Source: Rosa chinensis (lineage: Eukaryota > Streptophyta > Magnoliopsida > Rosales > Rosaceae). Taken from it: a stretch of 64,000 nt of DNA. The position numbers were made by a program, and so were the translations under genes. The DNA lies in contig NC_037090.1 in NCBI RefSeq assembly GCF_002994745.2, forward strand, positions 28,378,501 to 28,442,500, in the 5' to 3' direction. Positions 5,919 to 46,699 of the stretch are shown piece by piece (position 1 is the first letter of the stretch; every line of letters begins with the position of its first letter). The notes under the pieces were generated by a model. The model was not told the origin of the DNA. It was given only the letters and a program-made list of their open reading frames with translations, and searched no databases.

Positions 5919-6119
5919 TGCTTCTGTGTTCAAAATATTTTTCTCCAATTTTCCATTTCTCTTCTCTAGGGTCTGCGAGTTTTAAAGAAAGGTCAGTGAC
6001 CCAGTGCAGTTTAATGCTGTTATTATTATTATTATTTTTTATAAATTATTGTTCTTTATAAATTTTGGTAGTTTTATCCTAAAGTAAAGAGGGTAATTAA
6101 GAAATCAGAATAATATCAT

Positions 6120-15493: not shown

Positions 15494-15536
<43 letters not shown>

Positions 15537-19876: not shown

Positions 19877-20049
19877 TGCTTCTGTGTTCAAAATATTTTT
19901 CTCCAATTTTCCATTTCTCTAGGGTTTTGCGAGTTTTAAAGAAAGGTTAGTGACCCAGTACAATTTGAAGCATATATTTTTTTTAAAAAAATTGGTTCAA
20001 ACAGTACTTAAATTATTGCTCCTTATAAATTTTAGTAACTCACATTTTA

Positions 20050-25665: not shown

Positions 25666-25670
25666 GATAC

Positions 25671-27317
25671 TGTTTGGCTCCAATTTTGTTGCAGCTGGTC
25701 AACAGTCTCTTTTCTGTGCGGGCGTGCCAGCACAGTTCTGGTGCGGTCGTCGGGGGTGTCCCTTGACCTGACTTCTTTCAAGCGATTGTGGACGAGGAGA
25801 GTACCAACCTCGTCGTGGGATTCTTTGTGCCTCGTGGTGAGAACTTTTGCTGAGCTTCTTGAAAATCACCAAATCGATACTCGATGTTGTAGATCGAACA
25901 GAGCGAGAACCACTGGGAAATGAGGAGAACTTGCTAAAGCGTGACTTTAGCTTGGCTGGGTTGCTAGGGCGTTACCCTTGCTTGGCTGGTTCCGTAACCG
26001 TTGTGGTCGCGACACTACCGTCGGCTCCCGAGAAGATTAGGACCGAAGTACGTTGACAGAGGGTTTGGTGGCACTGATAGTCGGCTCCTGAGGAGACTAG
26101 GACTTAGAGTGTGATCACCGATAAGAGAAAGAGAAGGAGAGGAGTTGCTCTTAGAGAGGTTGCTCTAGAGAGAACTTAGATCATCTTAGAGATGTTGTTG
26201 TTGTTGTGAATGTGTGTTTGTGTTGCTGTTTGGTCGTGGTACTACAATCGGCTCTCGAGGAGACTAGGACCGAAGTACGTTGACAGAGGGTTTGGCAGCA
26301 CTGAAAGTCGGCTTCTGAGAAGACTAGGACTAGGAGTGTGATCACCTGTAAGAGAAAGAGAAGGAAAGGAGTTGCTCTTAGAGAGGTTGCTCTAGAGAGA
26401 ACTTAGATCATCTTAGAGATGTTTTGATGTTGAATGTGAATGTGTGTTTTAGAATGAGAGGAGAAGGTGTTTATATAGGGAAGAAAAAGAAGAGTGAAAT
26501 GATGAGTGGAAGAAAAATAATGAAAGTGGAGTATGAAAGTGATTTGTAAAATATGGAAAAGATAGAGAAATGATGAAATGAAAGCAAAGCATGAAGGTGC
26601 AGAAACATGGAAGTGATGATGATCTATTAAAGAGATTGTAGTAGAAAAATATATCCAAGGAAAAAAAGAAAAGCATCTAGCTTTCTTCATGTGGGTAGGA
26701 AACATGAACATGTGAATATTGAGCTGGTTTTAGGTCAGTTTCTGCCCCTTTATTCCTTCAATTATTTCTCCAACAAGACTTCAGAATGAGCCTTCGACTT
26801 CTTCATAAAAAATGTTCCACTATGAGTGTAGATCATCCTGACAAATTTTCAGAGCTTTATTCCATGCGGTTGGGCCGAAAATGCTTCTGGACCTCTTACA
26901 GGTCCAGTTTTCCAGTTTTGCTTCTGTAGAAAATTGGACTGATTGTTTGAAGGCCTTCCACTTAAAACTAGCTCTGGAACTCTTCATAAGAAATGATCCT
27001 TGGGATGTCTAGTATTAATCTGAAAAGTTTCAGCTCATTTAGATTTCATTTGGTTAGTCTGCCGCCCCTCCTTCCTTGTTTAGCTCGGATTCTCCTAGCC
27101 GAAGTAAGAAAATGTGCTAAAGTTGGCTTTTCATTTCCATGCTTCCATCATTTCCTTTTCTTACAGCTCGCATAATTCTCCATAGTAGGCTTTATTTAGC
27201 CTTTAAATAATATATTTCGAACTTGTCGACAATATATATAGCTTGAGCCACTGGCATTGGCTCAATTTCTCCAACACATGCCTTGTCAGGCCAAAATGCT
27301 CATTTTGGGTCCAAACA
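25671..27317 (-). mobile_element. R-family LTR, left (3' LTR of element E1)
   Basis: 1,647 bp, TGTTTGG...CCAAACA. On the minus strand it follows a polypurine tract (GGTCTGGGGGGCAA, complement of 27318-27331). It contains two copies of the ~218-bp leader repeat (about 26015-26430). Confidence 0.9.
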
Positions 27318-27686
27318 TTGCCCCCCAGACCTCGAAGTCAAAGGTCTTCGTCTTGAATGAAGAGGTCTTGAATCAGCACTGCTCTTATAATGTCGTTGCT
27401 CCAAAGCCACTTGTATTGGCTTGACTGAAATTACTTGATTGATTCCATATAAGCCTCTAAATAGGCCATAAAGCTTGAATGCCACAATCTGAATTGCCTT
27501 TGTCTTGAACTGACGCTTCCTTTACCAAATTTATTGCCCCAATGTATCTGATGTCTGGTATGCAGTGAATTGGTGAAACTTGGGTAGGTTGTAGGAGATC
27601 AGAACTTTAGCGTGCCCCCCATGCGAAGGAGACTGCTTTTGATTGCGAATGAGGATCCTTCTCTTCCTTGGTGGTAGCTTCGCCAT

Positions 27687-27908
27687 GTGTATAGCAGTAA
27701 GTGCCTTGTTCGCTGGCTCTTTGTTGAGAATGCGATTGCTGTAGAAGAAACCCAACTTGATGAACCATTAGCTACTTCTGAAGAAATGGGCCACAACCTG
27801 GCCCGTGTCAGAGAACAGGCCACTCAGGCCGAAGCTGGTGCCATTACAGCAAAACGCCACGTGGAGGAACTTTGTTTGAAATTGAGCTTTGCGGGCCAAT
27901 CTCTGTAA
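27687..27908 (+). pseudogene. Coiled-coil-like frame shared by E1 and E2
   Basis: The plus-strand frame ends in QLDEPLATSEEMGHNLARVR...AKRHVEELCLKLSF. The same segment with few changes is at 34080-34287 in E2. The heptad-like, Glu/Ala/Leu-rich composition suggests a coiled coil. It is antisense to gag. Function and origin are not recognised; it may be a second captured host fragment. Confidence 0.4.
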
Positions 27909-28228
27909 GCCCCCTCGAAAACCGTTCAGTCTCCTCACATGCTGCTAATCCCTTCTTTTCCGAGATTTAAGGCATTAATCACTCGTTGAAAAACAACGAT
28001 CGTGAAAAATAATCTTGTGAAAAGAACAGTTACCTCCTCGAAAACAGTTCGTTTTCCTCACATGCTATTAATCCTCTAATAATATCTAACTCCTCAAAAA
28101 CCGCTCCTCACATGCTACCAGTCCCTTTTTTTTTTCTCGAGATTTGGGGCAACTTTAGTCACGCTTTACTGACACTTGACTCTTCTCTTTGACCGTCCGT
28201 CCAAGGGTGGAGATTTGCCTGAAGTCCC

Positions 28229-28236
28229 TATAAATA
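28229..28236 (+). promoter_or_regulatory. TATA-like box upstream of captured region
   Basis: TATAAATA in CCCTATAAATAG, conserved at 34482-34489 in E2. It is followed by a leader-like stretch and an ATG (28289). It may be a host promoter piece carried in the element. Confidence 0.35.
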
Positions 28237-29724
28237 GTTGTATTTTGGGCAGGGAATACTCACAACAAATCTTCTGAAACGTTCAAGAAATGGCCTTTCA
28301 GTGCTTACTTCTCTTTCTCCTTCTTCACAAATCTTCCCCTCATGAAATGACCTTTAGCCTCTAAATTTTTAGGCTTTATGGCGTAATCTTAGGCAACCCC
28401 TTGTTTCGACCTTCTGAAATTCTGCAACAACAATGCCAGGCTTCAGATTGGTTTAGAAAAGCGAGGGGGCTCCGAGTGTGGGATCAACGATCATGCGAGT
28501 CATCTTCATCATAATCCTTACACGCGGAGAAAATCGGGGAAGGGAGGAAAGCCACTTTGAGGCCAAAGATCCTTCCTCGAACCATTCCTTCTGGACCAGG
28601 CCCGTGTTGTGCCCTCCAGATGGAAGGGGCTTTGGTTCTCACCTCCTTCTCCCCCTTTCTCTTCTTGATAGAATCTTGGAGGGATGAGAAGGGATGGACT
28701 CTTTGAAGGAATGGGTTCAAGATACAGAATGGCTATTCATGTACTTCACGTCCAGCTAATGGTGGTTACCAAGGCTAGAGGGGGTGCAGAGACTCAAGCT
28801 GATATTTGGTTCCTTCACTCTCTGCCCCTCCTTGAGATAATGGCGCGGCTCAACTTGACGTTGGATTCCATAGCTGCTTCCAATTGAGGGGGCTTGGAGG
28901 CTCCATTTTCTTTTACAGGTGTCTCCCCTTCTCATGGATACTGGCGTTGGGCAAACCAATGTTGTATTCCTCTGCCGTTTCCATGTAAAAGGGGCGCGGG
29001 GGCTCCGTTACTCCTCTTTTTCCTTCTCTGAAGTCTGCCCTTCCTTGAGATAATGGCGCGGCTCAACTCGACGTTGGATTCCATAGCTACTTCCACTTGA
29101 GAAAAGATTCAGAAGATATCCGAAGATTCCTGTTTTGTATTCTAGCCACTTTTGGCTTTGTAATGAATGTACTGCTTTTGGCCGCAAAGCCACTTTATGA
29201 ATACAATAATATTTTCTTATCCTGATATTCAAATATCCGTGAGAAGCCAATAATTGTGTCTCGCAAGGTCCCCAATATAGGCCCCCTAGTTGCATATTAA
29301 AAATAATATGAACTTTTAAAATATGCTCCGCGTCAAAAAGAGCCTCGCGACGAGGGTTTTGAGAAAATATTTATCTTTTGGATCCACTTGCTGGTCCCAA
29401 CTCAATTCGCATTAATTAGCTGTTGAAAACTCCACCGTGAGAAGATAATATTGAAAATGGAATAGTTACATCCTCAAAAACCGTTCGGTTCCGTCACGCG
29501 CCAATAATTCCTTCTTTTCCGAAATTTAGGGCAACTTTAATCACGCTTTACTGACACTTGATTCTTCTCTTTGACCGTCCATCCAAGAGCGGACATTTGG
29601 ATGCCTATATCTTCCTCCATATTGTAAACCCAAATTTTCAATCCCAAAATCGTTTCATCAACATCAATCTTTCTTAATTACTTATCATCATCACTCTTCC
29701 ATTCTCACATTCTCGCCATCATCA

Positions 29725-30306
29725 ATGGAACCACAAAACCGGCATCCAACCGAGGATGGAGGAAGCAACAAAGCCGCCGAGAGTAGTCCTAACATGCATT
29801 GCAAGCAGAGTAATACCAGGTGGCTTCCTACTACAGATCAGATAAGAATCCTCAAGGAGCTTTACGATGACAAGGGAGTTAAGTCCCCCACTGTAGAGCA
29901 GGTTTAGAGGATCACTCTCCAGCTAAAATGGTACGGACAGATCGAGAACAAGAACGTCTTTTATTGGTTCCAGAATCAAAGGGCTCGGGAGAAGCTGTCC
30001 AAGAAAAAGCTCACTTCGGATGTTCAAGTGCCCAACCAAAGATCAGGGCTTGTTGGTGGATCCATTAATCTCAATTTTGGGTCAACTAGTTCTGCTGATG
30101 TTGGTGGATCCATCATGGAACAACGAGGAGAAGATCACCAGGAGATTAAAACCCTTCCACTGTTCCTCATGCATGGTGAGGACATCTTTGGCAACATGAA
30201 GACTACTTCCGATGGAGGTGGTGGTCACGGTGGTGGCTCTCACATTTCCCTTGAGCTCAACCTTTCTTGTGAGGGCAAAGCTGGAAAAAGTTTCCGGAGC
30301 CGCTGA
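29725..30306 (+). pseudogene. Captured WUSCHEL-like homeobox sequence in E1
   Basis: 193 codons with one in-frame TAG at codon 61. The homeodomain (about residues 31-96) begins TRWLPTTDQIRILKELY and has helix 3 NVFYWFQNQRAR, the WOX/WUS signature. The WUS box TLPLFLMH is at 143-150, and an EAR-like SLELNL at 175-180 near the C-terminus. WUS is the transcription factor that maintains stem cells in the shoot meristem. This copy is shorter than typical WUS (about 290 residues), mostly in the linker. It is uninterrupted by introns and lies antisense inside a retrotransposon. About 130 bp of 5' leader is shared with E2. Best read as a processed, captured and decayed copy. Confidence 0.9.
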
Positions 30307-31003
30307 CTCGGCTTTGTAGCTTCGCGAGTGTAGGGACCCTTAGAATTGCCCCCGAAGAATTGTATTTATGATTTTTTTTTTTTTGAATAAAATAGCAAGA
30401 AAATTCATATACAAAGCTGTAAAAAAAAAAAATTTATTTTTTTTATTATTTTTTATAAGTAGCTGAATTCAATAAGACAATGTGAATCAAGGTTTAGACA
30501 TGCGGCCCAAGTATAGTCGCCTAGACACAAATTTTCTTTCAAATCCTTTGGGCAACCTTACTGAAATGGCCAGGTGGGGGAGGGCGAACAAGAGAGGCAG
30601 AATCCATTTTGGCATGAGCTACTCCCACATAGTGGTTTAGGCCCATTCGCACGCACCTTTGGATTCAAGAACCTGTCATGAACGTTGTCCCCTATCTAGA
30701 CACCATTTCACATAGGCTATACTTACTAAGATGAGAAAGGTCATAAGTGTGAAGACAGTTCAACAAGTGTTAATAAAAGTCGCCCTTGACCTTAAGGGAC
30801 CTGATCGAACTAGGCACCAATAAGGAGTTTAGACCACTATTAACAAAAGAGACTTCACCTATTCCATTATGATTCACAACCCCTTACCAAATTCAACTCT
30901 TTTTTTTTTTTTTTTTTTTAAACTATGAAAATAAAGGTAAAAAACAACTGAAAACTGATAGGAAATTAACAAAAAAGCAAGGAGCTAGCAGCAAAACGTT
31001 TGG
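30307..31003. mobile_element. E1 spacer between WUS copy and gag
   Basis: Non-coding, with T- and A-runs. Also found at 38493-39163 (E2) and reverse-complemented at 40380-40830 (E3), so it belongs to the element rather than to the captured gene. Confidence 0.75.
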
Positions 31004-31891
31004 CTAACCTCTAGAAGACCATGGGGGAGGCCATCTATGCTTCATTCCAAGCTCCGATGTATCAAAATTTGTAGGGTAAAAATCCCTCCTGTGAGAGCTT
31101 GTAGGAAAAGAACAAAGATACTTCTCATCGAAAACTTGGGAAAAATTTGGCTCGTAGGAGGAGTAATCTTGCCCCCCAAGTATCTTTGTTGGTTGGCGAA
31201 ACATGATCTTCAATTGTAATTTGGGAGATGACGGTGTCCTAAGATTGGCTTTGTCGCCAACTGTCGCCAACTTCTCTTGATCAAAGGGATGATCATGGGT
31301 CATATCTTGCCCTCCATGCATCTGATCAGTAGCCACATATTTGGCTTGATCAGTGGAAAAATCAGATATTTGTTCAGAGACAATTGTATTGTCAGAAGAA
31401 CAATCTTGTTGATGACCTTTTCCATGCACAGCCTCTGTGTAAGGCTGTGACTCACCAGTGAGACCCTTAGGTTGATTGCCACCTATAGGCAAGTTAGTCT
31501 CAGAAACGACCTCTTCGTGAGCAGGGTTTTAACGTTCGAATTCGCCTTGATGCGAATTAGCCAAGGTGGAACCTTCCTCGAGTAAGGTCGTGAACTCAGA
31601 TGTGATGTTCGCGGCATGTTGAGTGGTCTGTTTGTCGCTGCTCAAGAAAGGCTTATGGAATTGTTCTCTAGCTTCTCGAGCGTTCTGCTCAATTTGTTGG
31701 TCCCAATCGTAAAACCTCTGCTTTGTTTTTTCTATCAAACTGGCCATGTCCCTGGCTCGCTTTTCTTTATGCCTCTCGATGTTGGCCATGATGATCGCGA
31801 GCTGTTCCTCAATGCTTGCCCCCTCTGGGATGGGAATAGGCATAAACTCATCATTAATGGCAGTATCGCCAGTGGTGGCAACATTGACCAT
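31004..31891 (-). pseudogene. Gag-like gene of E1 (one premature stop)
   Basis: Same length (295 codons plus stop) as the intact gene at 39461-40348. It has a TAA at 31529-31531 where E3 has CAA, after GEFER. N-terminus MVNVATTGDTAINDEFMPIP, then a charged helical stretch (ERHKEKRARDMASLI). No zinc knuckle. One substitution separates it from an open frame. Confidence 0.8.
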
Positions 31892-31977
31892 CTATTCACT
31901 TTAGAAATTTCTTTTGGTAAAGATTTTCCCCTGGCATCTCAATGATGGCGAACAAATGCAAAAAGACTCTAGTATAG

Positions 31978-32151
31978 TCCCACTGGGCGTGCCAAAATGT
32001 TTGTTTTGAAGCCCGGTGGTTGAATGTCTTCAAGAGAAAAAAAGTTCTAACCTTGTCCCACCGGGTGTGCCAAAATGTTTGTTTTGAAGCCCGGTGGTTG
32101 AATGTCTTCAAGAGAAAAAATTCTAAGCTTGTCCCACTGGGCATGCCAAAA
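31978..32151 (-). repeat. Triplicated primer-binding-site-like motif of E1
   Basis: The motif TTGGCACGCCCAGTGGGA (minus strand, with variants) occurs three times, at about 31978, 32069 and 32131, separated by ~75-bp direct repeats. The last abuts the LTR at 32152, the position expected of the tRNA primer site. E3 has two copies, at 39279 and 39355. Confidence 0.75.
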
Positions 32152-33696
32152 TGTTTGGCTCCAATTTGGTTCTAGCTGGTCAACAGTCTCTTTTCTGCGC
32201 GGGCGTGCCAGCGCCGTTCGGGTGCGGTCGTCGGGGGTGTCCCTTGACCTGACTTCTTTCAAGCGATTGAGGACGAGGAGAGCACCAACCTCGCCGTGGG
32301 ATTCTTTGTGCCTCGTGGTGAGGACTTTTGCTGAGCTTCTTGTTTGGCTCCAGTTTTGTTGCAGCTGGTCAACAGTCTCTTTTCTGCGCGGGAGTGCCAG
32401 CACCGTTTGGGTGCGGTCTTCGGGGGTGTCCCTTGACCTGACTTCTTTCGAGCGATTGTAGTCGAGGAGAGCACCAACCTCGTCGCGGGATTCTTTGTGC
32501 CTCGTGGTGAGGACTTTGCTGTAGTTTCTTCTTGTTCACACAATCGATACTCAATGTTGCAGATTGAGCAGAGCGAAATCACCGGGAAGTGTTGAGATCT
32601 TGCTAAAGCGTGACTTTAGCTTGGCTGGGTTGCTAGGGCGCTACCCTTGCTTGGCTGGTTCTGTAACCGTTGTGGTCGCGGCACTACCGTCGGCTCCCGA
32701 GGAGACTAGGACCGAAGTACGTTGACAGAGGGTTTGGTGGCACTGAAAGTCGGCTCCTGAGGAGACTAGGACTAGTAGTGTGATCACCGTAAGAGAAAGA
32801 GAAGGAGAGGAGTTGCTCTTAGAGAGGTTGCTCTAGAGAGAACTTAGATCATCTTAGAGATGTTGTTATTGTGAATGTGTGTTTTAGAATGAGAGGAGAA
32901 GGTGTTTATATAGGGAAGAAAAAGAAGAGTGGAAGAAAAATAATGAAAGTGGAGTATGAAAGTGATTTGTAAAATATGGAAAAGATAGAGAAATGATGAA
33001 ATGAAAGCAAAGCATGAAGGTACAGAAACATGGAAGTGATGATGATCTATTAAAGAGATTGTGGAAGAAAAATATATCCAAGGAACAAGAGAAAAGCATC
33101 TAGCTTTCTTCATGTGGGTAGGAAACATGAACATGTGAATATTGAGCTGGTTTTAGGTCAGTTTCTGCCCCTTTATTCCTTCAATTATTTCTCCAACAAG
33201 ACTTCAGTATAAGCCTTCGACTTCTTCATATGAAATTATCGACCATGAGTGTAGATTACTGTGGTAAAATTTCAGAATTTATTTCCATGTGGTTGGGCTG
33301 GAAATGCTGCTGGACCTCTTACAGGTCCAGTTTTCCAGTTTTGCTTCTGTAGAAAATTGGGCTGATTGTTTGAAGGCTTTCCACTTAAAACTAACTCTGG
33401 CACTCTGCATAAGAAATGATCCTTGGGATGTCTAGTATTAATTTGGAAAGTTTCAGCTCATTTAGATTTCATTTGGTTAGTCTGCCGCCCCTCCTTCCTT
33501 GTTTAGCTCGGTTTCTCCTAGCCAAAGTAGGAAAATGTGCTAAAGTTGACTTTTCATGCTTCCATAGTAGGCTTTATTTAGCCTCTAAATATATATTTCG
33601 AACTTGTCGACAATATATAGCTTGAGCCACTGATATTGGCTCAATTTCTCCAAGACGTGCCTTGTCAGGCCAAAATGCTCATTTTGGGTCCAAACA
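32152..33696 (-). mobile_element. R-family LTR shared by E1 (5') and E2 (3')
   Basis: 1,545 bp. Its right edge is followed by E2's polypurine tract, and its left edge by E1's primer-binding motif. The first ~190 bp (TGTTTGGCTCC...) are tandemly duplicated, 32152-32340 and 32341-32530. Only one copy of the 218-bp leader repeat is present. Confidence 0.88.
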
Positions 33697-34079
33697 TCGC
33701 CCCCCAAACCTCGAAGTCAAAGGTCTTCGTCTTGACTGAAGAGGTCTTGAATCAGTACCACTCTTATAATGTTGTTGCTTCAAAGTCGTTGTTCCAAAGC
33801 CACTTTTATTGGCTTGAAATTGCTTGACTGATTCCATATAGGCCTCTAAATAGGCCATAAAGCTTGAATGCCACTACTGAATTGCCTTTGCCATGAACTG
33901 ACGCTTCCTTTGCCAACTTTATTGCCCCCCATGGATTTGGTGTTTGGTATGCAGTGAATTGGTGAACTTGGGCAGGTTGTAGGAGATCATAACTTTAGTG
34001 TGCCCTCCATGCGAATGAGACTGCTTTTGATCGCGAATGAGGATCCTTCTTTTCCTTAGTGGTAACTTTGCCCAAGTAT

Positions 34080-34287
34080 CTGCCTTGTTCGCTGGCTCTC
34101 TGTTGAGAATGTGATTGTTGCAGAAGAAGCCCAACTCGATGAACCTTTGGCTGCTTCTGAAGAAATGGGCCACAACCTGGCCCGTATCAGAGATCGGGCC
34201 ACTCAGGCCAAAGCTGGTGCCATTGCAGCGAAACGCCACGTGGAGGAACTTTGTTTGAAATTGAGCTTTGGAGGTCAATCTTTGTAG
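34080..34287 (+). pseudogene. Coiled-coil-like frame, E2 copy
   Basis: Counterpart of 27687-27908 (QLDEPLAASEEMGHNLARIR, AKRHVEELCLKLSFGG), ending at TAG 34285-34287. Conservation of the frame in both elements is noted; function unknown. Confidence 0.35.
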
Positions 34288-36052
34288 GCCCCCTCATAAA
34301 CCGGTCGGTCTTCTCACATGCCAATAATCCCTTCTTTTAATAGCTAACTCCTCAAAAACCGCTCCTCACATGCTACTAGTCCCTTTTTTTTCCCGAGATT
34401 TGGAATCACTAATCTCGATTTACTGACATCGGTTTGACTCTTTAACCATCCGTCCAAGGGTGGAGATTTGCCTGAAGTCCCTATAAATAGTTGTATTTTG
34501 GGCAGGGAATACTCACAACAAATCTTCTGAAACATTCAAGAAATGGCCTTTCAGTGCTTGCTTCTCTTTCTCCTTCTTCACAAATCTTCCCCTCATGAAA
34601 TGACCTTTAGCCTCTAAATTTTTAGGGTTTATGGCGTAATCTTAAGCCTGGATTAGGCCTTATGGCGTAATCTTAGGCAACCCCTTGTTTCGGCCTTCTG
34701 AAATTCTGCAACAACAATGCCAGGCTTCAGATTGGTTTAGAAACGCGAGGGGGCTCCGAGTGTGGGATCAACGATCATGCGAGTCATCTTCATCATAATC
34801 CTTACACGCGGAGCAAATCGGGGAAGGGAGGGAAGCCAAATTGAGGTTCGTCTTTCCTCCTCTGTTTCATTCCTTCTGGACCCGGCCCGTGTTGTGCCCT
34901 CCAGATGGAAGGGGCTTTGGTTCTCACCTCCTTCTCCCCCTTTCTCTTCTTGATAGAATCTTGGAGGGATGAGAAGGGATGGACTCTTTGAAGGAATGGG
35001 TTCAAGCTACAAAATGGCTGTTCCTGTACTTCACGTCCAGCTAATGGTGGTTACCAAGGCTAGAGGGGGTGCAGAGACTCAAGCTGATATTCGGTTCCTT
35101 CACTCTCTGCCCCTCCTTGAGATAATGGCGCGGCTCAACCCGACGTTGGATTCCATAGCTGCTTCCAATTGAGGGGGCTTGGAGGCTCCATTTTCTTTTA
35201 CAGGTGTCTCCCCTTCTCATGGATACTGGCGTTGGGCAAACCAATGTTGTATTCCTCTGCCGTTTCCATGTAAAGGGGGCGCGGGGGCTCCGGTACTCCT
35301 CTTTTTCCTTCCCTGAAATCTGCCCTCCTTGAGATAATGGCGCGGCTCAACCCGACGTTGGATTCCATAGCTGCTTCCACTTGAGAAAGATTCAGAAGAT
35401 ATCTGAAGATTCCTGTTTTGTATTCTAGCCACTTTTGGCTTTGTAATGAATGTACTGCTTTTGGCCGCACAGCCACTTTATGAATACAATAATATTTTCT
35501 TATCCTGATATTCCAATATCGGTGAGAAGCCAATAATTGTGTCTCGCAAGGCCCCAAATATAGGCCCCCCTAGTTGCATATTGAAAATAATATGAACTTA
35601 AAATATGTTCTGCGTCAAATCGAGCCTCGCGACGAGGGTTTCGAGAAAATATGTATCTTTTGGATCCACTTGCTGGCTCCCAACTCAAAACTCTTAGCGC
35701 CAATAATTCCTTCTTTTCCGAGATTTAAGGCACTAATCACTCGTTGAAAAACCAAAGTCGTGAAAAAATAATCTCGTGGATAGAGCAATTACCTCCTCGA
35801 AAACTATTCGGTTCCCTCACGCGCCAATAATTCCTTCTTTTCTGAAATTTAGGGCAACTTTAATCACGCTTTACTGACACTTGACTCTTCTCTTTGACCG
35901 TCCATCCAAGAGCGGACATTTGGATGCCTATATCTTCCTCCATATTGTAAACCCAAATTTCCAATCCCAAAATCATTTCATCAACATCAATCTTTCTTAA
36001 TTACTTATCATCATCACTCTTCCATTCTCACATTCTCTTTAATCCATCATCA

Positions 36053-38492
36053 ATGGAACCACAAAACCGTCATCCAACCGAAGATGGAGGAAGCAACAAA
36101 GCCGCCGAGAGTAGTCCTAACATGCATTGCAAGCAGAGTAACACCAGGTGGCTTCCTACTACAGATCAGATAAGAATCCTCAAGGAGCTTTACGATGACA
36201 GGGGAGCTAAGTCCCCCACTATAAAGCAGGTTCAGAGGATCACTCTCCAGCTAAAATGGTACGGACAGATCGAGTTCAAGAACGTCTATTTTTGGTCCGT
36301 GAACCAAAGGGCTCGGGAGAAGAAGAAGAAGAGGAAGCTCACTTCGGATGTTCAAGTGCCCAAGCAAAGATCAGAGCTTGTTGGTGGATCCATTAATCTC
36401 AATTTTGGGTCAACTAGTTCTGCTGGTGTTGGTGGATCCATCATGGAACTGAAGGAATTGTGTCCTAAAACAATCATTTTGATGTAATTATTATTGTAAT
36501 GATTATTAATCAAAAGGGCAAGTTTATTGTTCATTGCTTATATTTGATATTTGATTGAACAAGGTCCAAGGAATATGAGTTAAAGAGAAAGTAATCTAAA
36601 GAGTTAGATGTGTGAGACCTTTACTCTTTCACACTCTTATCCTAAAAGGTTCCTAGTTATAGGATTATCACTTGGACATTGATAATCCGGAAAGACTAGC
36701 ACATACTATGTATGCTCAATATAGAGGATGATATGTCTCTTGTCATTTGTGTGGAGACACTAATACAAGTATGTGGGTGCTCTTAATTTAAAGAGTACAC
36801 TGAACGCGATCATTAGAGTTCTTGTATGGAGTCTTACTTACATGTCAAACTTGAACTCTAAATTGCAATAATACAAATTAGTCCTTTGACCTGAGACACC
36901 ATAGTTGTCTTATGAGTGAATTGATTATTTCTTGATGATGCAATAATATTGTGTCCCTTAAAGGATATAATAGATGCATTCATTGGTATAATCAATTCGG
37001 TCATGGAGACATGTGAGTGTACAATAAGGAATCTCTATCCTTAAGTAAATAAGGTGTATGTTCAAAGATGTGATTCAATGAGTCTTTGGCCAAAGCATTG
37101 AATGAGATTAAAAAGGAGTTTCTAATCACATTCTAAGAATCACATAAGAATGAAAAATCACATTAGGGGATTAACATATCAATTCCATACCCCAATGATG
37201 TGATTTAGAACATAGTGTTAGAGAAGGACCGTATTGTATTGTAATTCCAATTGAATAGGTTCTTTGTCATTCTACATTAACTAGGGTAGTCATGATATGT
37301 TGCAAGACGTCACTCATGACTTGTGAAGTCCCTGAGGATTAATAAACATTTATAATCCTAATAACAAGGGAGAATCAAAAATGGAGTTTTTGATTCGTAA
37401 ACAAAATAGAATGGTTTCTATAAACTTCACTGCCTTGTTAATTAGAACCTAAGAGATCGCACACCATATAAGTGGATCATTGAGATTGTATATGAAGAAA
37501 ATTAAACAAGAGTTGGTTATGACCAAATAATTAATTAGATTTATTATTTGGACATAATTAGGATTTTCGGGTAAAACCGAACCTATTGGGCCTAAACGAT
37601 TGTCGGGCTTTTGGTGTGGACTTGGGCTTCACTAAATGAGATTTAAATGAAAGCCCAAGACACATTTTTAGTGCCCAATAACATGTATGGACCAGCCAAC
37701 ATATTGGCTTTATGAAAGCCAATATTTTTCTTTTAGTAATTGGAGTTATTTCCTATTATATAAAAGTGAAAGCATGGACATAATAATAAGTGTGTCTCCA
37801 CACTATTATTTTCAGATTTGAGAGAGAGAGAGAGAAAGAGTTCTCTCTTGGTCCATTACAAAATTAAAGGAAAGAAGAACACTTGCATAATTTCTTCTTT
37901 TCTTTCATCTTTCTTCATCTCTTGATTCACTTGGTGAAGATCCTTAGAGGCCATATCTTTTTGTGGCTTTACTTATTACATCAAGGAGAAGATCACAAGC
38001 ACAAGAAGGAGTTCTTAATTCAAGGTGCTTCAAGGTGGAGGAAACACACACAAGGAGAGATCAAGGAGAGGAACTTTGGTGGTTCACTTGGATCGGATTG
38101 AGATCACGCTCCAAGGGTGAGTAGAACATAAACTACCTCTTTGTTCTTCCTTACTTTGCATGCTATGTGCCTATGTTTATATACATATCACAATAAGCCA
38201 AGATCATGGGTTAAAGGAATGGATTTTATGTTTAGTTAGTAGTTTAATGGTTAAACTAATTCCGCACTAATTAAAAAGTTTTGAAATCCATCCATTCCTT
38301 CAGGAACAACGAGGAGAAGATCACCAGGAGATTAAAACCCTTCCACTGTTTCCCATGCATAGTGAGGACATCTTTGGCAATATGAATACTACTTCCGATG
38401 GAGGTGGTGGTCACGGTGGTGGCTCTTACATTTCCCTTGAGCTCAGCCTTTCCTGCGAGGGCAAAGCTGGAAAAAGTTTACGGAGCCGCTGA
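36053..38492 (+). pseudogene. Captured WUSCHEL-like homeobox sequence in E2, split by a solo LTR
   Basis: Codons lie at 36053-36449 and 38308-38492. Together they are 582 nt, exactly the length in E1, with no stop or frameshift apart from the inserted LTR. Homeodomain TRWLPTTDQIRILKELY is present, but helix 3 reads NVYFWSVNQRAR in place of the canonical WFQN, which would damage DNA contact. A basic run KKKKRK follows. The WUS box TLPLFPMH is closer to the canonical form than in E1, and the tail is SLELSL. The open frame may reflect recent capture rather than selection. The insertion makes a full protein impossible. Confidence 0.88.
36450..38302 (+). mobile_element. Solo LTR (1,853 bp) inside captured WUS, TSD GGAAC
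   Basis: Ends TGAAGGAATTG... and ...CATTCCTTCA (terminal inverted TGAAGGAAT), flanked by GGAAC at 36445-36449 and 38303-38307. The E1 copy shows the empty site at 30117-30121. The style is that of a Ty1/copia LTR, by appearance only. It contains a GA tract near 37820 and no gene. Confidence 0.94.
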
Positions 38493-39165
38493 CTCGGCTT
38501 AGTAGCTTCGCGAGTGTAGGGACACTTAGAATTGCCCCCGAAAAGTTGTATTTATGACTTTTTTTTTTTTTTTTTTGTAGGCTAAATAGGCTTAGTACTG
38601 TATAGTGTTGCCCCCCTAGTGTTGCTAGGCATAGCGAAGAAATGATTATGGGCCTCAAAAACAGGCCTTCATGAATGGGCTTCGCGAGTGTAGGAACACA
38701 AGAATTGTCCCCTAAGAGTTGTATTTATGATTTTTTTTTTTTTAATAAGTAGCTAAATTCAATAAGACAATGTGAATCAAGGTTTAGACATGCGGCCCAA
38801 GTATAGTCGCCTAGACACAAATTTTTTTCAAATCCTTTGGGCAACCTTACTGAAATGGCCAGGTGGGGGAGGGCGAACAAGAGAGGCAGAATCCATTTTG
38901 GCATGAGCTACTCCCACATATAGTGGTTTAGGCCCATTTGCACGCACTTCTGGATTCAAGAACCTGTCATGAACGTTGTCCCCTTTCTAGACACCATTTC
39001 ACATAGGCTATACTTACTAAGATGAGAAAGGTCATAAGTGTGAAGACAGTTCAACAAGTGTTAATAAAAGTCGCCCTTGACCTTAAAGGACCTGATCGAA
39101 CTAGGCACCAATAAGGAGTTTAGACCAATATTAACAAAAGAGACTTCACCTATTCCATTATGACC

Positions 39166-39278
39166 TAACAAAAGAAGTCAGGTCAAGGGACACCCCTGAC
39201 GACCGCACCCGAATGGTGCTGGCACGCCCGCGCAGAAAAGAGACTGTTGACCAGCTGCAACAAAACTGGAGCCAAACA
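39166..39278 (+). mobile_element. Truncated 5' LTR of inverted element E3
   Basis: Last ~110 bp of an R LTR (GAAGTCAGGTCAAGGGACACC ... GGAGCCAAACA) in plus orientation, joined to the broken end of E2. The primer-binding motif TTTTGGCACGCCC follows directly. Confidence 0.8.
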
Positions 39279-39460
39279 TTTTGGCACGCCCAGTGGGACA
39301 AGGTTAGAATTTTTTCTTTTGAAGACATTCAACCACCGGGCTTCAAAACAAACATTTTGGCACGCCCAGTGGGACTACACTAGAGTCTTTTTGCATTTGT
39401 TCGCCATCATTGAGATGCCAGGGGAAAATCTTTACCAAAAGAAATTCCTAAAGTGAATAG

Positions 39461-40348
39461 ATGGTCAATGTTGCCACCACTGGCGATACTGCCATTAATG
39501 ATGAGTTTATGCCTATTCCCATCCTAGAGGGGGCAAACAGTGAGGAACAGCTCGCGATCATCATGGCCAACAGCGAGAGGCATAAAGAAAAGCGAGCCAG
39601 GGACATGGCAAGTTTGATCTTAAAAACAAAGCAGAGGTTTCGCGATTGGGACCAACAAATTGAGCAGAACGCTCGAGAAGCTAGAGAACAATTCCATAAG
39701 CCTTTCTTGAGCAGCGACAAACAGACCACTCAACATGCCGCGAACATCACATCTGAGTTCACAACCTTACGCGAGGAAGGTTCCAGCTTGGCTAATTCGC
39801 AGCAAGGCGAATTCGAACGTCAAAAACCTGCTCGCGAAGAGGTCGTTTCTGAGACTAACTTGCCTATAGGTGGCAATCAACCTAAGGGTCTCATTGGTGA
39901 GTCACAGCCTTACACAGAGGCTGTGCATGGAAAATGTCATCAACAAGATTGTTCTTCTGACAATACAATTGTCTCTGAACAAATATCTGATTTCTCCACT
40001 GATCAAGCCAAATATGTGGCTACTGATCAGATGCATGGGGGGCAAGATATGACCCATGATGATCCCTTTGATCAAGAGAAGTTGGAGACAGTTGGTGACA
40101 AAGCCGATCTTGGGACACCGTCATCTCTGAAATTACAATTGAAGATCATGCCTCGTCAACCAACAAAGATATTTGGGGGGCAAGAATACCCCTCTCACGA
40201 GCCAAATTCCTTCAAATTCTTCAACACGAAGTATCTTTGTTTCTTTCCTGCAAGCTCTCACAAGGGGGGTTTTCATGCTATAAATTTGTACGCATTGGAG
40301 CTTGGAGTGAAGCATAGATGGCCTCCCCCGTGGCCTTCTGGAGGTTAG
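39461..40348 (+). CDS. Gag-like protein of R element E3 (intact)
   Basis: 295 residues, ATG at 39461, about 180 bp after the LTR end. The N-terminal half is charged and helical (SEEQLAIIMANSERHKEKRA, TKQRFRDWDQQIEQNAREAR). The C-terminal half is Gln/Asp-rich with no recognised domain. No CCHC zinc knuckle, protease or polymerase follows in the 960 bp before the 3' LTR. A structural (capsid-type) role is inferred from its position after the primer-binding motif. The same frame, with one stop, is in E1. Retention of an intact frame suggests a fairly recent copy or selection on the family. Confidence 0.72.
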   Translation: MVNVATTGDTAINDEFMPIPILEGANSEEQLAIIMANSERHKEKRARDMASLILKTKQRFRDWDQQIEQNAREAREQFHKPFLSSDKQTTQHAANITSEFTTLREEGSSLANSQQGEFERQKPAREEVVSETNLPIGGNQPKGLIGESQPYTEAVHGKCHQQDCSSDNTIVSEQISDFSTDQAKYVATDQMHGGQDMTHDDPFDQEKLETVGDKADLGTPSSLKLQLKIMPRQPTKIFGGQEYPSHEPNSFKFFNTKYLCFFPASSHKGGFHAINLYALELGVKHRWPPPWPSGG

Positions 40349-41308
40349 CCAAACATAGTGCTGCTAACTTCTTTCTTTGTTTTTAAATTTCCTGTCAATT
40401 TTTAGTTTTCACTTTTATTTTCGTCATTTGTGAATCATAACTGGATAGGTGAAGTTTCTTTTGTTAATATTGGTCTAAACTCCTTATTGGTACCTAGTTC
40501 AGGTCCCTTAAGGTTAAGGACGGCTTTTATTAACACTTGTTAAACTGTCTTCACACTTATGACCTTTCTCATCTCAGTAAGTATAGCCTATGTGAAATGG
40601 TGTCTAGAAAGGGGACAACGTTCATGACAAGTTCTTGAATCCAAAAGTGCATGCAAATGGGCCTAAACCACTATGTGGGAGTAGCTCATGCCAAAATGGA
40701 TTCTGCCTCTCTTGTTCGCCCTTCCCCATCTGGCCATTTCAGTAAGGTTGCCCAAAGGATTTGAAAGAAAATTTGTGTCTAGACGACTATACTTGGGCCT
40801 CATGTCTAAACCTTGATTCACAATGTCTTATTTAAAAAAAAAAAATACAAAAATACAAAAAGAGTTTCAAATTTATGCGTCGTGGAGGATGCAAAAAATT
40901 GTGTTCTTGCCTAATAGTGGCTGGAACTTGCTAATATACTTAAGAGGCCATTGGTATTGGTCTGGGCACATATACAAGAGGCATTTAATATGCCTAGTAT
41001 GGTATTAGCAGTGGAGGAGGTCAAATCAATATTTTTGCCAATAATTGTGGCGAAAGCTGGGTTACGAATTGTTGGCAGCGAAGTGGTTTTAATTACATGG
41101 CCTTGCAAAGGATGGTTCGCGAAGGAAGACTGGCGATTAATATATGTATGCTCATTATATATAATTAAGAGGGAGAGAGGCCACTGTTCAAGTAATTTTA
41201 GTCAAGCCAATACAAGTGGCTTCGGAGCAACGACATTATAAGAGTAGTGCTGATTCAAGACCTCTTCAGTCAAGACGAAGACCTTTGACTTCGAGGTCTG
41301 GGGGGCAA
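40349..41308 (+). mobile_element. E3 3' internal region without WUS
   Basis: 40380-40830 is the shared spacer. 40840-41180 is private to E3, with a small frame at 40951-41241 that is not recognised. 41190-41308 is shared again and ends in the polypurine tract GGTCTGGGGGGCAA. E3 therefore has a different, shorter cargo where E1 and E2 carry WUS. Confidence 0.7.
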
Positions 41309-42106
41309 TGTTTGGACCCAAAATGAGCATTTTGGCCTGACAAGGCATGTTTTGGAGAAATTGAGCCAATATCAGCGGCTCAAGCTATATATTTTCGACA
41401 AGCTCGAAATATATATATTTAGAGGCTAAATAAAGCCTACTATGGAAGCATAAAAAGTCAACTTTAGCATATTTTCCAACTTCGGCTAGGAGAAACCGAG
41501 CTAAACAAGGAAGGAGGGGCGGCAGACTAACCAAATGAAATTTAAATGAGCTAAAACTTTCCAGATTCACTCTAGACATCCTAAGAATCATTTCTTATGA
41601 AGAGTACAAGAGCTATTTTTGAGTGGAAAGCCTTCAAACAATCAGCCCAATTTTCTACAGAAGCAAAACTGGAAAACTGGACCTGTAAGAGGTCCAGCAG
41701 CATTTCCGGCCCAACCACATGGAGGAAAGCTCTGAAAATTTGTCAGGATGATCTACACTCATAGTGGAACATTTCATATGAAGAAGTTGAAGGCTTATAC
41801 TGAAGTCTTGTTGGAGAAATAATTGAAGGAATAAAGGGGCAGAAACTGACCTAAAACCAGTTCAATATTCACATGTTCATGTTTCCTACCCACATGAAGA
41901 AAGCTAGATGCTTTTCTCTTTTTCCTTGGATATATTTTTCTTCTAAAATCTCTTTAATAGATCATCATCATTTCCATGTTTCTACACCTTCATGCGTTGC
42001 TTTCATTTCATCATTTCTCTATCTTTTCCATATTTTACAAATCACTTTCATACTCCACTTTCATTATTTTTCTTCCACTCATCATTTCACTCTTCTTTTT
42101 CTTCCC

Positions 42107-42114
42107 TATATAAA
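42107..42114 (+). promoter_or_regulatory. LTR promoter TATA box
   Basis: TATATAAA in CCCTATATAAACACC, present in every R LTR seen here (for example reverse-complemented near 26476). Transcription would start about 30 bp downstream, placing the 218-bp repeats in the transcribed leader. Confidence 0.65.
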
Positions 42115-42169
42115 CACCTTCCCCTCTCATTCTAAAAGACACATTCACATTCAACAACAACATCTCTAA

Positions 42170-42760
42170 GATGATCTAAGTTCTCTCTAAGAGCAACTCC
42201 TCTCCTTTTCTTTCTCTTACCGGTGATCATACTCCTAGTCCTAGTCTTCTTAGAAGCCGACTTTCAGTGCCACCAAACCCTCTGTCAAAGTGCTTCGATC
42301 CTAGTCTCCTTGGGAGCCGATTGCAGTACCACGACCACAAAAGACACATTCACATTCAACAACAACATCTCTAAGATGATCTAAGTTCTCTCTAGAGCAA
42401 CCTCTCTAAGAGCAACTCCTCTCCTTTTCTTTCTCTTACCGGTGATCACACTCCTAGTCCTAGTCTTCTTAGAAGCCGACTTTCAGTGCCACCAAACCCT
42501 CTGTCAAAGTGCTTCGATCCTAGTCTCCTTGGGAGCCGATTGCAGTACCACGACCACAAAAGACACATTCACAACATCAAAACATCTCTAAGATGATCTA
42601 AGTTCTCTCTAGAGCAACCTCTCTAAGAGCAACTCCTCTCCTTCTCTTTCTCTTACCGGTGATCACACTCCTAGTCCTAGTCTTCTCAGAAGCCGACTTT
42701 CAGTGCCACCAAACCCTCTGTCAACGTACTTCGGTCCTAGTCTCCTCGGGAGTCGACGGT
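42170..42760 (+). repeat. Three ~218-bp tandem repeats in LTR leader
   Basis: Unit landmarks CTCCTAGTCCTAGTCTTCT at about 42232, 42451 and 42668. Copy number differs among R LTRs: one at 32152-33696 and 54275-55052, two at 25671-27317, three here. Confidence 0.88.
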
Positions 42761-43107
42761 AGTGCCGCGACCACAACGGTTACGGAACCAGCCAAGCAAG
42801 GGTAACGCCCTAGCAACCCAGCCAAGCTTAAGTCACGCTTTAGCAAGATCTCAATACTTCCCGGTGATTTCGCTCTACTCAATCTGCAACATCGAGTATC
42901 GATTGTGTGAACAAGAAGAAGCTCAGCAAAAGTCCTCACCACGAGGCACAAAGAATCCCACGATGAGGTTGGTGCTCTCCTCGTCCATAATTGCTTGAAA
43001 GAAGTCAGGTCAAGGGACACCCCCGACGACCGCACCCGAATGGTGCTGGCACGCCCGCGCAGAAAAGAGACTGTTGACCAGCAGCAGCAAAATTCTGGAG
43101 CCAAACA

Positions 43108-44305
43108 CCTGTAAGAGAAAGAGAAGGAAAGGAGTTGCTCTTAGAGAGGTTGCTCTAGAGAGAACTTAGATCATCTTAGAGATGTTGTTGTTGTGAATGT
43201 GTATTGGTGTTGGTGTTTGGTCGTGGTACTACAATCGGCTCGCAAGGAGACTAGGACCGAAGTACATTGACAGAGGATTTGGCGGAACTGAAAGTCGGCT
43301 TCTGAGAAGACTAGGACTAGGAGTGTGATCACCGGAAAGAAAAAAGAGAAGGAGAGGAGTTGCTCTTAGAGAGGTTGCTCTAGAGAGAACTTAGATCATC
43401 TTAGAGATGTTTTGATGTTGAATGTGAATGTGTGTTTTAGAATGAGAGGAGAAGGTGTTTATATAGGGAAGAAAAAGAAGAGTGAAATGATGAGTGGAAG
43501 AAAAATAATGAAAGTGGAGTATGAAAGTGATTTGTAAAATATGGAAAAGATAGAGAAATGATGAAATGAAAGCAAAGCATGAAGGTGCAGAAACATGGAA
43601 GTGATGATGATCTATTAAAGAGATTGTAGTAGAAAAATATATCCAAGGAAAAAGAGAAAAGCATCTAGCTTTCTTCATGTGGGTAGGAAACATGAACATG
43701 TGAATATTGAGCTGGTTTTAGGTCAGTTTCTGCCCCTTTATTACTTCAATTATTTCTCCAACAAGACTTCAGTATAAGCCTTCGACTTCTTCATATGAAA
43801 TTATCCACCATGAGTGTAGATTACTGTGGTAAAATTTCAGAATTTATTTCCATGTGGTTGGGCCGGAAATGCTGCTGGACCTCTTACAGGTCCAGTTTTC
43901 CAGTTTTGCTTCTGTAGAAAATTGGACTGATTGTTTGAAGGCCTTACACTTAAAACTAGCTCTGACACTCTTCATAAGAAATGATCCTTGGGATGTCTAG
44001 TATTAATCTGGAAAGTTTCAGCTCATTTCGATTTCATTTGGTTAGTCTTCCGCCCCTCCTTCCTTGTTTAGCTCGGATTCTCCTAGCCGAAGTAAGAAAA
44101 TGTGCTAAAGTTGGCTTTTCATTTCCATGCTTCCATCATTTCCTTTTCTTACAGCTCGCATAATTCTCCATAGTAGGCTTTATTTAGCCTCTAAATAATA
44201 TATTTCACACTTGTCGACAATATATATAGCTTGAGCCACTGGCATTGGCTCAATTTCTCCAACACATGCCTTGTCAGGCTAAAATGCTCATTTTGGGTCC
44301 AAACA
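43108..44305 (-). mobile_element. Truncated R LTR closing the nest
   Basis: Starts inside the LTR (CCTGTAAGAGAAAG, equivalent to about 26334) and runs to the normal end CCAAACA at 44305. It is the remaining part of the outermost 5' LTR, cut where E3 joins. GATAC follows. Confidence 0.85.
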
Positions 44306-46699
44306 GATACAACTGGATACCTTTTGAGTTCGGGTCGAGTCAGGAGCTTCTTTCTAGAGCACGATGATGGTGGAGGGTTGAGCTCGGCCGCCGGAAGAGT
44401 GATACTCAAATATTTCAATATCATACTCAAATATCATGGTACAATCGATACTCGAAAACACATTATATGAAATCTCGATAATGCAACTGTACTCAAATAC
44501 TCGAAAATCATTAATTCTCATATCATATTTAACTCGTCAATATGCTAATGAAAATATAATTTATGAAAATCCGATAAATCATTAATTTAAGGAAATCAAT
44601 AAATTGTCAAATGATCTATTAATCTAAATGAGAAAATAAAAATAAAAATATTCCATGGACAATTAATTTAAAAATAAATGTCCACTTACAGAATTGTGGC
44701 TATGACAGCCGTCCAATGAATTTTTCCTCGAGCTCAATCCATACGTCGTCCTGAATAAATTGATAATTATGAATAAGAGAATTGAAATTAAATTAATGAT
44801 AAAAAAAATCAACACTCCTAAACGAGAATTTATCGAAAGCTTCATGTCGGAACGAGCTTAAAGTTCATAGGTTATGTTGACTCAACAATTATAACAACCT
44901 ATCAAAAAATGGGTAGATCCAAAGGTCAGATCTTTCTGAATCAAAACCCGAATTTCAGAAACTTCGAAAATTCCTATTGATCCGAAAGTTCATCATATGG
45001 CTACTAAACTAATCCACATGTCTGTAACGTCGTGGCCTACCTGAATCACCAAATCATAACCTCTAAAGTAGCCGGACGTGCCCCAATCTCCAACCCCGAA
45101 TTAGGTCATGAAATTTCATCACCATGATCCTCCCATCACCCCCAACAACTTTCTCAACTAATACCAACTCCAATATTAAGTCGGAATTTACCTCAAAAGG
45201 ATTTGGAAAGGATTTTGGGCCGAAATTGCTCAAATTCAAAATTCATTTTTCTCATGTTAAATCGAGATGTGAAACTTGGTGGGTTTGTAGAACATTGTAA
45301 TAGTTAGTCTCAACGTCCAATTTGCCAAAGTTAGCCGGAGTTTGAAAAATACGCCTGAAAAGGATCGTACCTTCTTTTCTTCGATTTGTCGTGTATGGCG
45401 AACGAGAGGATCCAAGGCTTATATGGTTTGAAATATGGTTCGAAGATGAAGAGAATGAGACCAGTTTCATATCTTGAGGTGGCCGGAAATGTTGCAATCG
45501 AGGTCGAGAAATTCCGGCATGAAATTTGGAAAATTTTGGGTTTAAGGGACCGAGTTTCCATTTTAGGAATCTTCCCAAAATGCCTGTTTTCGAAAATGGA
45601 ACCTGCTATTTATAGTATCAGACTTTTTCTAGAAATTACAAAATTGCCACTGACTTCAAGCCCTTATAAGTTCTTTGTTACAATTTTGATTTTAGACTTC
45701 ATGTCTTCGAACTCGATCTAACGTCCTCTTCAACTTTCCAGAATGAAGTTTTCTAAAATATTAAATGGAATAAAAAGTCAAATTTAACACCCTTACAAGC
45801 ATCGAAACGTAGGTAAAGTGAGTTAATTGTTGTTTACCGTCCAAATGACTAGTAAACAGGTAAGTTTAGGTACGAGGCATAACACTGGCTAGGCTAGCCC
45901 ATTTTCTTTTTCTTATCTCTTTTGGGCCTAGTTTGGTTTGGGCTGTTAGAGAGTGGCAAGGCCTATGGTTTTTTTTTTTTTTTGTTGCTTTGAATAATTG
46001 AGCTTCGCTCGGCTCTTACCCTATTCTGCCCTTGATCATAGTTGTTTGCTGATTGATGAGTGGTGATGTACACCATGAGGACTTTAGGCGTCAACATTCG
46101 TCAAGTCGGTTGCTCTGATGTAGAGTTGGATAGGAGTAGGGTTTTTTACTTTTTACATATTTTTTTTGTAGTTTGGTTTGTTTTTGTTTGATAGCTCTAC
46201 TTTATGTGGTCTGATTTGTACATCAAGATGTAATATGAGAGATTTTTGAATTCCTCTTGCTTGACTAAGAGAGGTCATTGTTTGAATGAAACCTGATTTT
46301 GTTTCCCTAAAAAAAAAAATGTTACTCATGTTTCAACACAAATCATTTCATTTTTCTTTTCACAATTAAATACAAACATAGTGTGTGGTGTTTCTAACTA
46401 GCGTTTTCACCTGTGCATTTGCACAAACTCACAGAGTCAAGTAAAAAAACAAAGAGATGAATAGTTTTGATTTATCAGTTTATCCACTTGCTTGTAGACG
46501 TGGGAATTTGAATGAATGCAGTTATCTATCCTATACTTCTCCCACTACACACGTCTCTCTTCTATAATTATCTCTTTATTTATTTATTTTTGTTTATTTC
46601 TTTTACTTATTACTATAATAACTTTTATATTTATTTGTTTCAATTAACTCAATATGTAATTAAGATAATTCAAAATTTGGTGAAGCTTTTTTTTTTTTT

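What the first reader, a model, noticed from the sequence alone, without database searches (positions are those of the whole stretch)
29725..38492. WUSCHEL-like coding sequence captured by a non-autonomous LTR element, in two copies
Seen: both minus-oriented R elements carry, antisense to gag, a frame with homeodomain TRWLPTTDQIRILKELY, WUS box TLPLF(L/P)MH and C-terminal SLEL(N/S)L. Known: these three parts together define WUS rather than other WOX genes, and WUS genes are normally split into three exons. Inferred: the intronless state means capture from spliced RNA, and amplification by the element could spread antisense or partial WUS transcripts affecting meristem control. The third element E3 lacks it, so capture happened within the family.
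Basis: partly seen in the sequence, partly recalled or inferred. Interest (0 to 1): 0.9.

Follow-up and report, generated by a model that had tools for sequence, protein, structure and literature searches.

The report
Rose retrotransposons carrying a stem-cell gene
In the rose genome a family of copy-and-paste mobile elements has picked up a processed copy of WUSCHEL, the plant stem-cell master gene, carries it backwards relative to its own genes, and has multiplied it into hundreds of copies whose working parts look preserved; the two copies in this stretch are broken ones.

Summary
The WUS-like sequence is real. The host is a rose: the best database hits are Rosa chinensis and R. rugosa proteins. 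Both window copies are broken: copy 1 by an in-frame stop, copy 2 by a 1.85-kb solo LTR.

In the host genome the cargo is far more than two copies. All 20 loci fetched round window-like hits hold it. Twelve have the R-type gag-like frame and LTR; seven have pol, antisense to the cargo. An aRH domain between RNase H and integrase and an antisense plant mobile domain point to Tat-lineage Ty3/gypsy; the window elements look like deletion derivatives.

Host WUS has three exons. Element copy L055 follows its spliced mRNA with both junctions exactly joined, so capture was from spliced RNA. The window copies cannot show this: they lack both intron sites.

A second subfamily gave 137 uninterrupted near-full-length matches among 150 rows; two of its elements have identical LTRs. 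Substitutions suggest constraint on homeodomain, WUS box and EAR, not on the rest. This probably explains the published, unexplained 381-member rose WOX family.

The parts
25666..25670 (.). left copy of 5-bp target site duplication GATAC
25671..27317 (-). 3' LTR of R1 (TGTTTGG...CCAAACA ends)
27318..27331 (-). polypurine tract GGTCTGGGGGGCAA next to the LTR; the same tract adjoins the LTR beside pol-bearing relative L027 (in L056)
27719..28030 (+). remnant shared with relatives; in L027 its counterpart overlaps the end of the antisense frame 6859-8187
28031..29574 (+). non-coding flank upstream of WUS (in WUS orientation), present in 19 of the 20 fetched loci; holds a TATA-type promoter-like stretch near 28229
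29601..29724 (+). 5' UTR derived from host WUS mRNA, copy 1
29725..30306 (+). WUS-like cargo copy 1: homeodomain, WUS box, EAR; in-frame TAG at 29905-29907; host homology ends near 30263, then element-derived tail
30432..30872 (-). internal stretch conserved between R1, R2 and (in part) E3
31004..31891 (-). gag-like frame of R1, broken into two frames; no Pfam match above cut-off
32152..33696 (-). LTR between R1 and R2, with a 189-bp tandem duplication at its low end
35924..36052 (+). 5' UTR derived from host WUS mRNA, copy 2
36053..36449 (+). WUS-like cargo copy 2, first part (homeodomain with WSVN in place of WFQN)
36450..38302 (.). solo LTR (TG...CA, 1853 bp, repeats GGAAC at 36445-36449 and 38303-38307) splitting copy 2
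38303..38492 (+). WUS-like cargo copy 2, second part (WUS box, EAR)
39171..43107 (+). E3, inverted member without WUS: gag-like frame 39461-40348, 3' LTR about 41309-43107
43108..44305 (-). truncated outer LTR; 96.2% identical to 26116-27317 (1152 of 1198 positions)
44306..44310 (.). right copy of target site duplication GATAC

Best explanation
A Tat-lineage (Ogre-like) Ty3/gypsy retrotransposon of roses took up a spliced, 3'-truncated WUS mRNA into the region between pol and its 3' LTR, in an antisense transcription unit: behind a TATA box and, at the other end, in frame with an element tail. Shown: identity, antisense place, spliced origin, near-constant 3' junction, spread in elements with and without pol, young insertions. 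Inferred: all copies go back to one capture; it happened by template switching between WUS mRNA and the element's own antisense transcript, which would explain why the gene is antisense to gag-pol; the product is a short WUS (homeodomain, WUS box, EAR, much of the linker lost) made from the antisense promoter; and some function of it has been kept. The window elements are old deletion derivatives: pol lost, WUS kept, TATA box lost, both WUS copies broken, so here the cargo is most likely inert.
For: Host WUS at C2:11711808-11713110 has three exons. L055 matches spliced mRNA 40-1137 at 95.2%, both junctions exact; L054 and L046 have the second junction exact and a deletion over the first. L054, L055 and L046 stop matching at mRNA 1137, subfamily-B copies L029, L031, L032 at 1135, window-type copies near 1123. 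A TATAAATAGG lies upstream of WUS in L055, L032, L029, L030, L031. Of 20 fetched window-like loci 20 have the cargo, 19 the flank, 12 the R-type gag-like frame and LTR; 7 others have pol, seen by Pfam in each; L021 has neither in reach. aRH between RNase H and integrase in L026, L027, L028; antisense PMD over cut-off in L013, L025, L026, L027. Same LTR family beside L027. 142 of 150 listed subfamily-B rows cover nearly the whole query, 137 of them without a stop. LTR pairs 100% identical in L029 (736 bp) and L031 (627 bp), 97.5% in L010. Relative omega: homeodomain 0.55, WUS box 0.28, EAR 0.08, rest 0.88.
Against: No expression data were analysed here; the only data read say clades I-V are nearly silent during rooting. 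Window-type copies have lost the TATA box, yet that subfamily is widespread. Intact frames in the young subfamily need no selection to explain them. The selection test rests on 34 copies, parsimony ancestors, branches treated as independent, and loci picked by homeodomain score, which favours the homeodomain result. Constraint appears on terminal branches too, which simple selection on replicating lineages does not predict, and the rest of the protein is at 0.77 (p=0.07) on internal branches, so the contrast is not sharp. L013 has the R-type gag-like frame together with a PMD frame, so the line between the two kinds is blurred. The template switch was not observed and no pre-capture element was identified. 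For L055 the LTR and pol were not fetched.
Confidence: 0.85

Rival explanations
1. Passive passenger: WUS was captured and amplified because the element happened to be active; the protein never mattered, and intact frames only reflect youth.
For: LTR pairs in L029 and L031 are 100% identical; 10 of 44 fetched copies lack a frame of 175 residues or more from the start codon; near-silence of clades I-V in a rooting experiment (PMC11405225).
Against: Constraint differs by domain on internal branches: homeodomain 0.67 (p=0.032), WUS box 0.28 (p=0.006), EAR 0 non-synonymous of 5 changes (p=0.003), rest 0.77 (p=0.07). Two long-diverged subfamilies both keep complete frames.
Confidence: 0.4
2. RNA function: the antisense transcript forms double-stranded RNA with the element's genomic RNA or with WUS mRNA, so it works through small RNAs on the element or on host WUS, not through a protein.
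For: Antisense promoter-like TATA; antisense transcripts of plant elements have been suggested to act this way (PMC7264820, passages).
Against: Pure RNA action does not predict the shortage of non-synonymous change in WUS box and EAR. Copy 1 is only about 82% identical to host WUS mRNA in its longest match.
Confidence: 0.15
3. A processed WUS retrocopy made by non-LTR machinery first landed in the genome, and the element acquired it later as DNA.
For: Explains antisense orientation without template switching on antisense RNA; contiguous copies without introns exist at several places.
Against: No poly(A) tract at the 3' junction in L054 or L055; WUS is cut 23 nt before its stop and runs into an element tail, and that junction is shared by L054, L055 and L046. 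No free-standing retrocopy was identified, but only three of the contiguous copies were fetched.
Confidence: 0.3
4. Ordinary host WOX gene family expanded by tandem or whole-genome duplication.
For: This is the hypothesis printed for the 381 rose WOX genes (PMC11405225 section 4.1).
Against: 19 of 20 window-like loci share the same element flank; L029 and L031 lie between identical LTRs; matches are contiguous over the intron sites or dispersed over contigs. The paper itself reports zero collinear genes within rose.
Confidence: 0.03

Closest known systems
Tat-lineage Ty3/gypsy elements (Ogre, Retand)
   Same: aRH between RNase H and integrase (L026, L027, L028) and a plant mobile domain frame in the 3' part, antisense (L013, L025, L026, L027). 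PMC6317226 (passages) gives that aRH position for Ogre and Retand and a plant mobile domain in 57% of Ogre.
   Different: An additional antisense frame that is recognisably a host developmental gene.
Antisense additional ORFs between pol and 3' LTR (Grande gene23, RIRE2, Retand; aORF-3R)
   Same: Position and orientation; antisense promoter reported for Grande (PMC7264820, PMC11963269, passages).
   Different: PMC7264820 says that the origin of most antisense aORFs is unknown and that transduced genes are usually in sense; here the source gene, its splicing and the junctions can be read.
Bs1 of maize and other gene-transducing LTR elements
   Same: Uptake of host gene sequence (named in PMC7264820).
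   Different: Usually in sense and, for transductions, in one or a few copies (same passages); here antisense and in at least hundreds of copies.
Orchid Ty3/gypsy elements with an m6A demethylase domain (PMC9289625; title and start of abstract in a search listing)
   Same: Recent acquisition of an additional domain by a plant Ty3/gypsy element.
   Different: Different domain; its position and orientation were not read here.
Rose WOX family of 381 members (PMC11405225)
   Same: Clade V motifs printed there resemble subfamily B here.
   Different: Treated there as host genes; words beginning 'transpos' do not occur in its main text.

Membership tests
WUSCHEL (WUS clade of WOX) | WOX homeodomain closest to WUS | tested here: met
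   E=1.6e-23 to WUSCHEL against 9.3e-19 to STENOFOLIA; host WUS identified and aligned; no WOX family tree was built
WUSCHEL (WUS clade of WOX) | WUS box and C-terminal EAR motif (motif names recalled) | tested here: met
   TLPLF(L/P)MH and SLEL(N/S)L in both window copies
WUSCHEL (WUS clade of WOX) | intact frame in the window copies | tested here: not met
   TAG at 29905; solo LTR at 36450-38302
Tat lineage, Ogre/Retand type | second RNase H (aRH) between RNase H and integrase | tested here: met
   RNase H, RVT_3, integrase in that order in L026, L027, L028; the window elements themselves have no pol
Tat lineage, Ogre type | plant mobile domain in an extra ORF | tested here: met
   PF10536 over cut-off in L013, L025, L026, L027; below cut-off in L016
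Tat lineage, Ogre type | RT/INT phylogeny and primer tRNA type | not tested
   no tree built; PBS-like TGGCACGCCCAGTGGGAC seen after the LTR, tRNA not identified
LTR retrotransposon | paired LTRs with TG...CA ends, polypurine tract, 5-bp TSD | tested here: met
   25671-27317 and 43108-44305 (the latter truncated), GATAC both sides; further LTR pairs in L010, L029, L031
Transduced host gene (processed) | introns removed at host splice sites | tested here: met
   L055 at both junctions; L054 and L046 at the second only, the first lying in a deletion; not testable in the window copies, which lack that part
Functional antisense aORF | transcription and translation | not testable with these tools
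   no RNA or proteome data on hand

The most novel reading that the evidence does not exclude
The element carries WUS as a working accessory gene: a short homeodomain repressor made from an antisense promoter and kept by selection for binding DNA and recruiting the corepressor, the plant counterpart of a retrovirus carrying a cellular growth gene. By acting in or creating stem-cell states, from which the plant germ line comes, it would help the element reach the next generation, or it would regulate the element's own transcription.
Probability: 0.35. Interest if true: 0.95.

Novelty: new variant of a known kind. Interest (0 to 1): 0.85.

Why it matters
It offers a testable cause for a printed puzzle, the 381 WOX genes of rose, whose authors say that further evidence is needed (PMC11405225), and warns that such members may not be ordinary host genes. 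It gives an antisense extra ORF of a plant LTR element a known source gene and readable junctions, where a review calls the origin of most such ORFs unknown (PMC7264820). If the protein works, an element family carries a stem-cell regulator.

Tried and rejected
Rejected: single-copy host locus; duplication of an intron-bearing gene; E3 as proof of when capture happened. 'Spliced capture seen in the window' was rejected as stated: the intron-bearing part is deleted there. The 16 IQ-TREE codon-model runs planned (four sequence sets by four models) hit the time limit and printed nothing; a parsimony count was used instead. Searches ended in script errors (94 after printing the 5' alignment; its 3' alignment was not made, so the 3' junction rests).

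The first selection counts kept copies by a motif pattern that includes WUS box and EAR, and by a BLAST end that includes EAR; both are circular for those motifs. One search uses frame length (and a helix-1 pattern to find the frame) and is the one relied on: 34 of 44 kept; dropped: L010, L016, L018, L024, L034, L042, L045, L046, L054, L055. It adds L039, L041 and L049, whose tails are cut or shifted, to the 31.

Viral contigs hold no relative at that sensitivity. Genome-wide counts of the LTR and of the gag-like frame could not be had (the tool was busy each time), so the share of elements with cargo is unknown. Ten literature searches were run; some searches bore on this capture, and none of their listings (titles and abstract starts) shows a report of it. 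No structure prediction was made.
Full report
WHAT IS IN THE WINDOW. Two WUS-like frames lie on the plus strand, 29725-30306 and 36053-36449 + 38303-38492, inside R-type LTR elements; the gag-like frame of R1 runs on the minus strand. Copy 1 matches the solved WUSCHEL homeodomain at E=1.6e-23. Copy 1 has an in-frame TAG at 29905; copy 2 is split by a 1853-bp solo LTR with GGAAC repeats. LTRs end TGTTTGG...CCAAACA; a polypurine tract GGTCTGGGGGGCAA adjoins them. The block 25671-44305 has GATAC on both sides, and its outer LTRs are 96.2% identical (1152 of 1198 positions); the inner LTR and the inverted E3 lie within it. R2 lacks gag and shares its LTR with R1, so the two cargo copies may come from unequal recombination within one insertion (inference).

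HOST. The protein search gave 131 hits, 120 listed; the best are Rosa chinensis and R. rugosa proteins named WUSCHEL-like or Homobox-WOX, some clusters standing for 80 or 91 sequences; Fragaria and Argentina appear with one named canonical WUS each (P0054, P0028). The window is C3:28378501-28442500 of a 515-Mb assembly, two of whose contig lengths (88556329 and 70290800) equal contig lengths listed for R. chinensis proteins, so the host is most likely R. chinensis. A paper reports 381 WOX genes in rose, 364 of them in rose-only clades, 170 in R. multiflora and 105 in R. rugosa, 9-14 in pear and other Rosaceae and 6-40 in Prunus, zero collinear genes within rose, and no accepted cause (PMC11405225; abstract and sections 3.2, 3.3, 3.4, 4.1 and 4.2 read, passages elsewhere).

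THE ELEMENT FAMILY. From I fetched 20 of 36 places (my count) with a window-like 180-nt homeodomain match, 10 kb each, mostly the top rows; not random. All 20 hold the cargo; 19 also hold the flank (not L019); 12 have the R-type gag-like frame and LTR in the same element orientation. Seven others (L009, L016, L022, L025-L028) have pol frames antisense to WUS, each with RT, RNase H or integrase by Pfam; L021 has neither within reach. In L027 the order is protease, RT, RNase H, RVT_3 (aRH), integrase in sense, then WUS antisense about 200 nt after the pol frame ends, then PMD antisense. aRH between RNase H and integrase marks Ogre/Retand, and PMD is common in Ogre (PMC6317226, passages). L013, an R-type locus, also has an antisense PMD frame. 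The stretch beyond L027 ends in the same polypurine tract and LTR family as the window. I therefore read the window elements as derivatives of a Tat element that lost pol; no element tree was built.

ORIGIN OF THE CARGO. The host gene (C2:11711808-11713110) has introns after positions 666 and 862 of the 1886-nt gene-oriented stretch. L055 follows the spliced mRNA from 40 to 1137 at 95.2%, exact at both junctions. L054 and L046 are exact at the second junction; the first lies in a deletion. L054 is flanked by protease/RT-coding sequence in antisense, as expected. The 3' junction lies 23 nt before the host stop and leads into an element tail (in frame by reading). At the 5' side a TATAAATAGG stands upstream of WUS 5' UTR in L055 and L032, and nearer the ATG in L029-L031; window R1, L027 and L054 lack that stretch. 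Window-type cargo has an internal deletion that removes the region of both introns. Antisense orientation is unusual for transduction (PMC7264820, passages); a template switch between WUS mRNA and the element's antisense transcript would explain it (inference).

SPREAD AND AGE. With Fragaria WUS as query: 247 matches, 132 of 830 candidates scored. With a subfamily-B protein: 158 matches, 150 of 691 scored; of 150 rows listed (counted by hand), 142 cover nearly all of the query, 137 of these without a stop. The tool calls such counts lower bounds. LTR pairs: 100% over 736 bp (L029) and 627 bp (L031); 97.5% over 1282 bp (L010).

SELECTION. Length-only set, 34 of 44 copies, 171 codons, parsimony states, expected N:S from the mutation spectrum of the non-coding flank. 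Relative omega: homeodomain 0.55 (N 89, S 68, p=0.00018), WUS box 0.28 (11/15, p=0.0014), EAR 0.08 (2/12, p=0.00005), the rest 0.88 (225.8/94.2, p=0.18). Against: few copies, related branches treated as independent, loci chosen by homeodomain score, long frames only, constraint on terminal branches too. I read this as suggestive of a functional protein in the past of the family, not as proof.

VERDICT. Capture and amplification: shown. One capture event: supported by the shared 3' end, not proved. Working protein that serves the element: open, about one in three. The window copies themselves: broken.

Noticed in passing
G000 C1, C2, C3, C7: Subfamily-B WUS copies are strongly confined: of 150 rows listed (counted by hand), 99 on C2 (34.0-88.4 Mb), 25 on C3 (0.4-16.3 Mb), 16 on C7 (2.3-21.1 Mb), 7 on C1 (59.8-64.1 Mb), 2 on C43, 1 on C4, none on C5 or C6. 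If the assembled rose is a hybrid, this young burst might mark segments from one parent species (inference).
   Followed up: partly
window 40850-41187: In E3 the place of the WUS cargo holds a different stretch of about 340 bp of unknown origin; possibly another captured piece.
   Followed up: no
window 36053-36449: Copy 2 reads WSVN in helix 3, nearer to rose proteins with VYFWFVNQRAREK (P0004, P0007) than to copy 1 (WFQN): perhaps recombination between cargo subfamilies.
   Followed up: no
L029, L030, L031: Subfamily-B elements carry a sense frame of 190-217 residues (MARTKVTPRRGVNQRR...) between WUS and the 3' LTR, of unknown kind.
   Followed up: no
L013:8832-9617: An R-type locus (gag-like frame, no pol) that nevertheless has an antisense plant mobile domain frame.
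   Followed up: partly
window 2875-6070 and 16867-20037: A 3.2-kb duplication at 91.7% identity, each copy with an F-box-like frame on the minus strand (Pfam tested on one).
   Followed up: partly
window 59031-62428: Transposase_21 frame with Transpos_assoc and DUF4218, followed by a DUF4216 frame; a CACTA-type element by recalled association.
   Followed up: partly
window 15501-16115: Ankyrin-repeat frame.
   Followed up: partly
L032, L038, L044; P0013, P0014: The WUS linker in subfamily B shows repeated units of the kind GGSIDLNFGSTSST, varying in number between copies.
   Followed up: no
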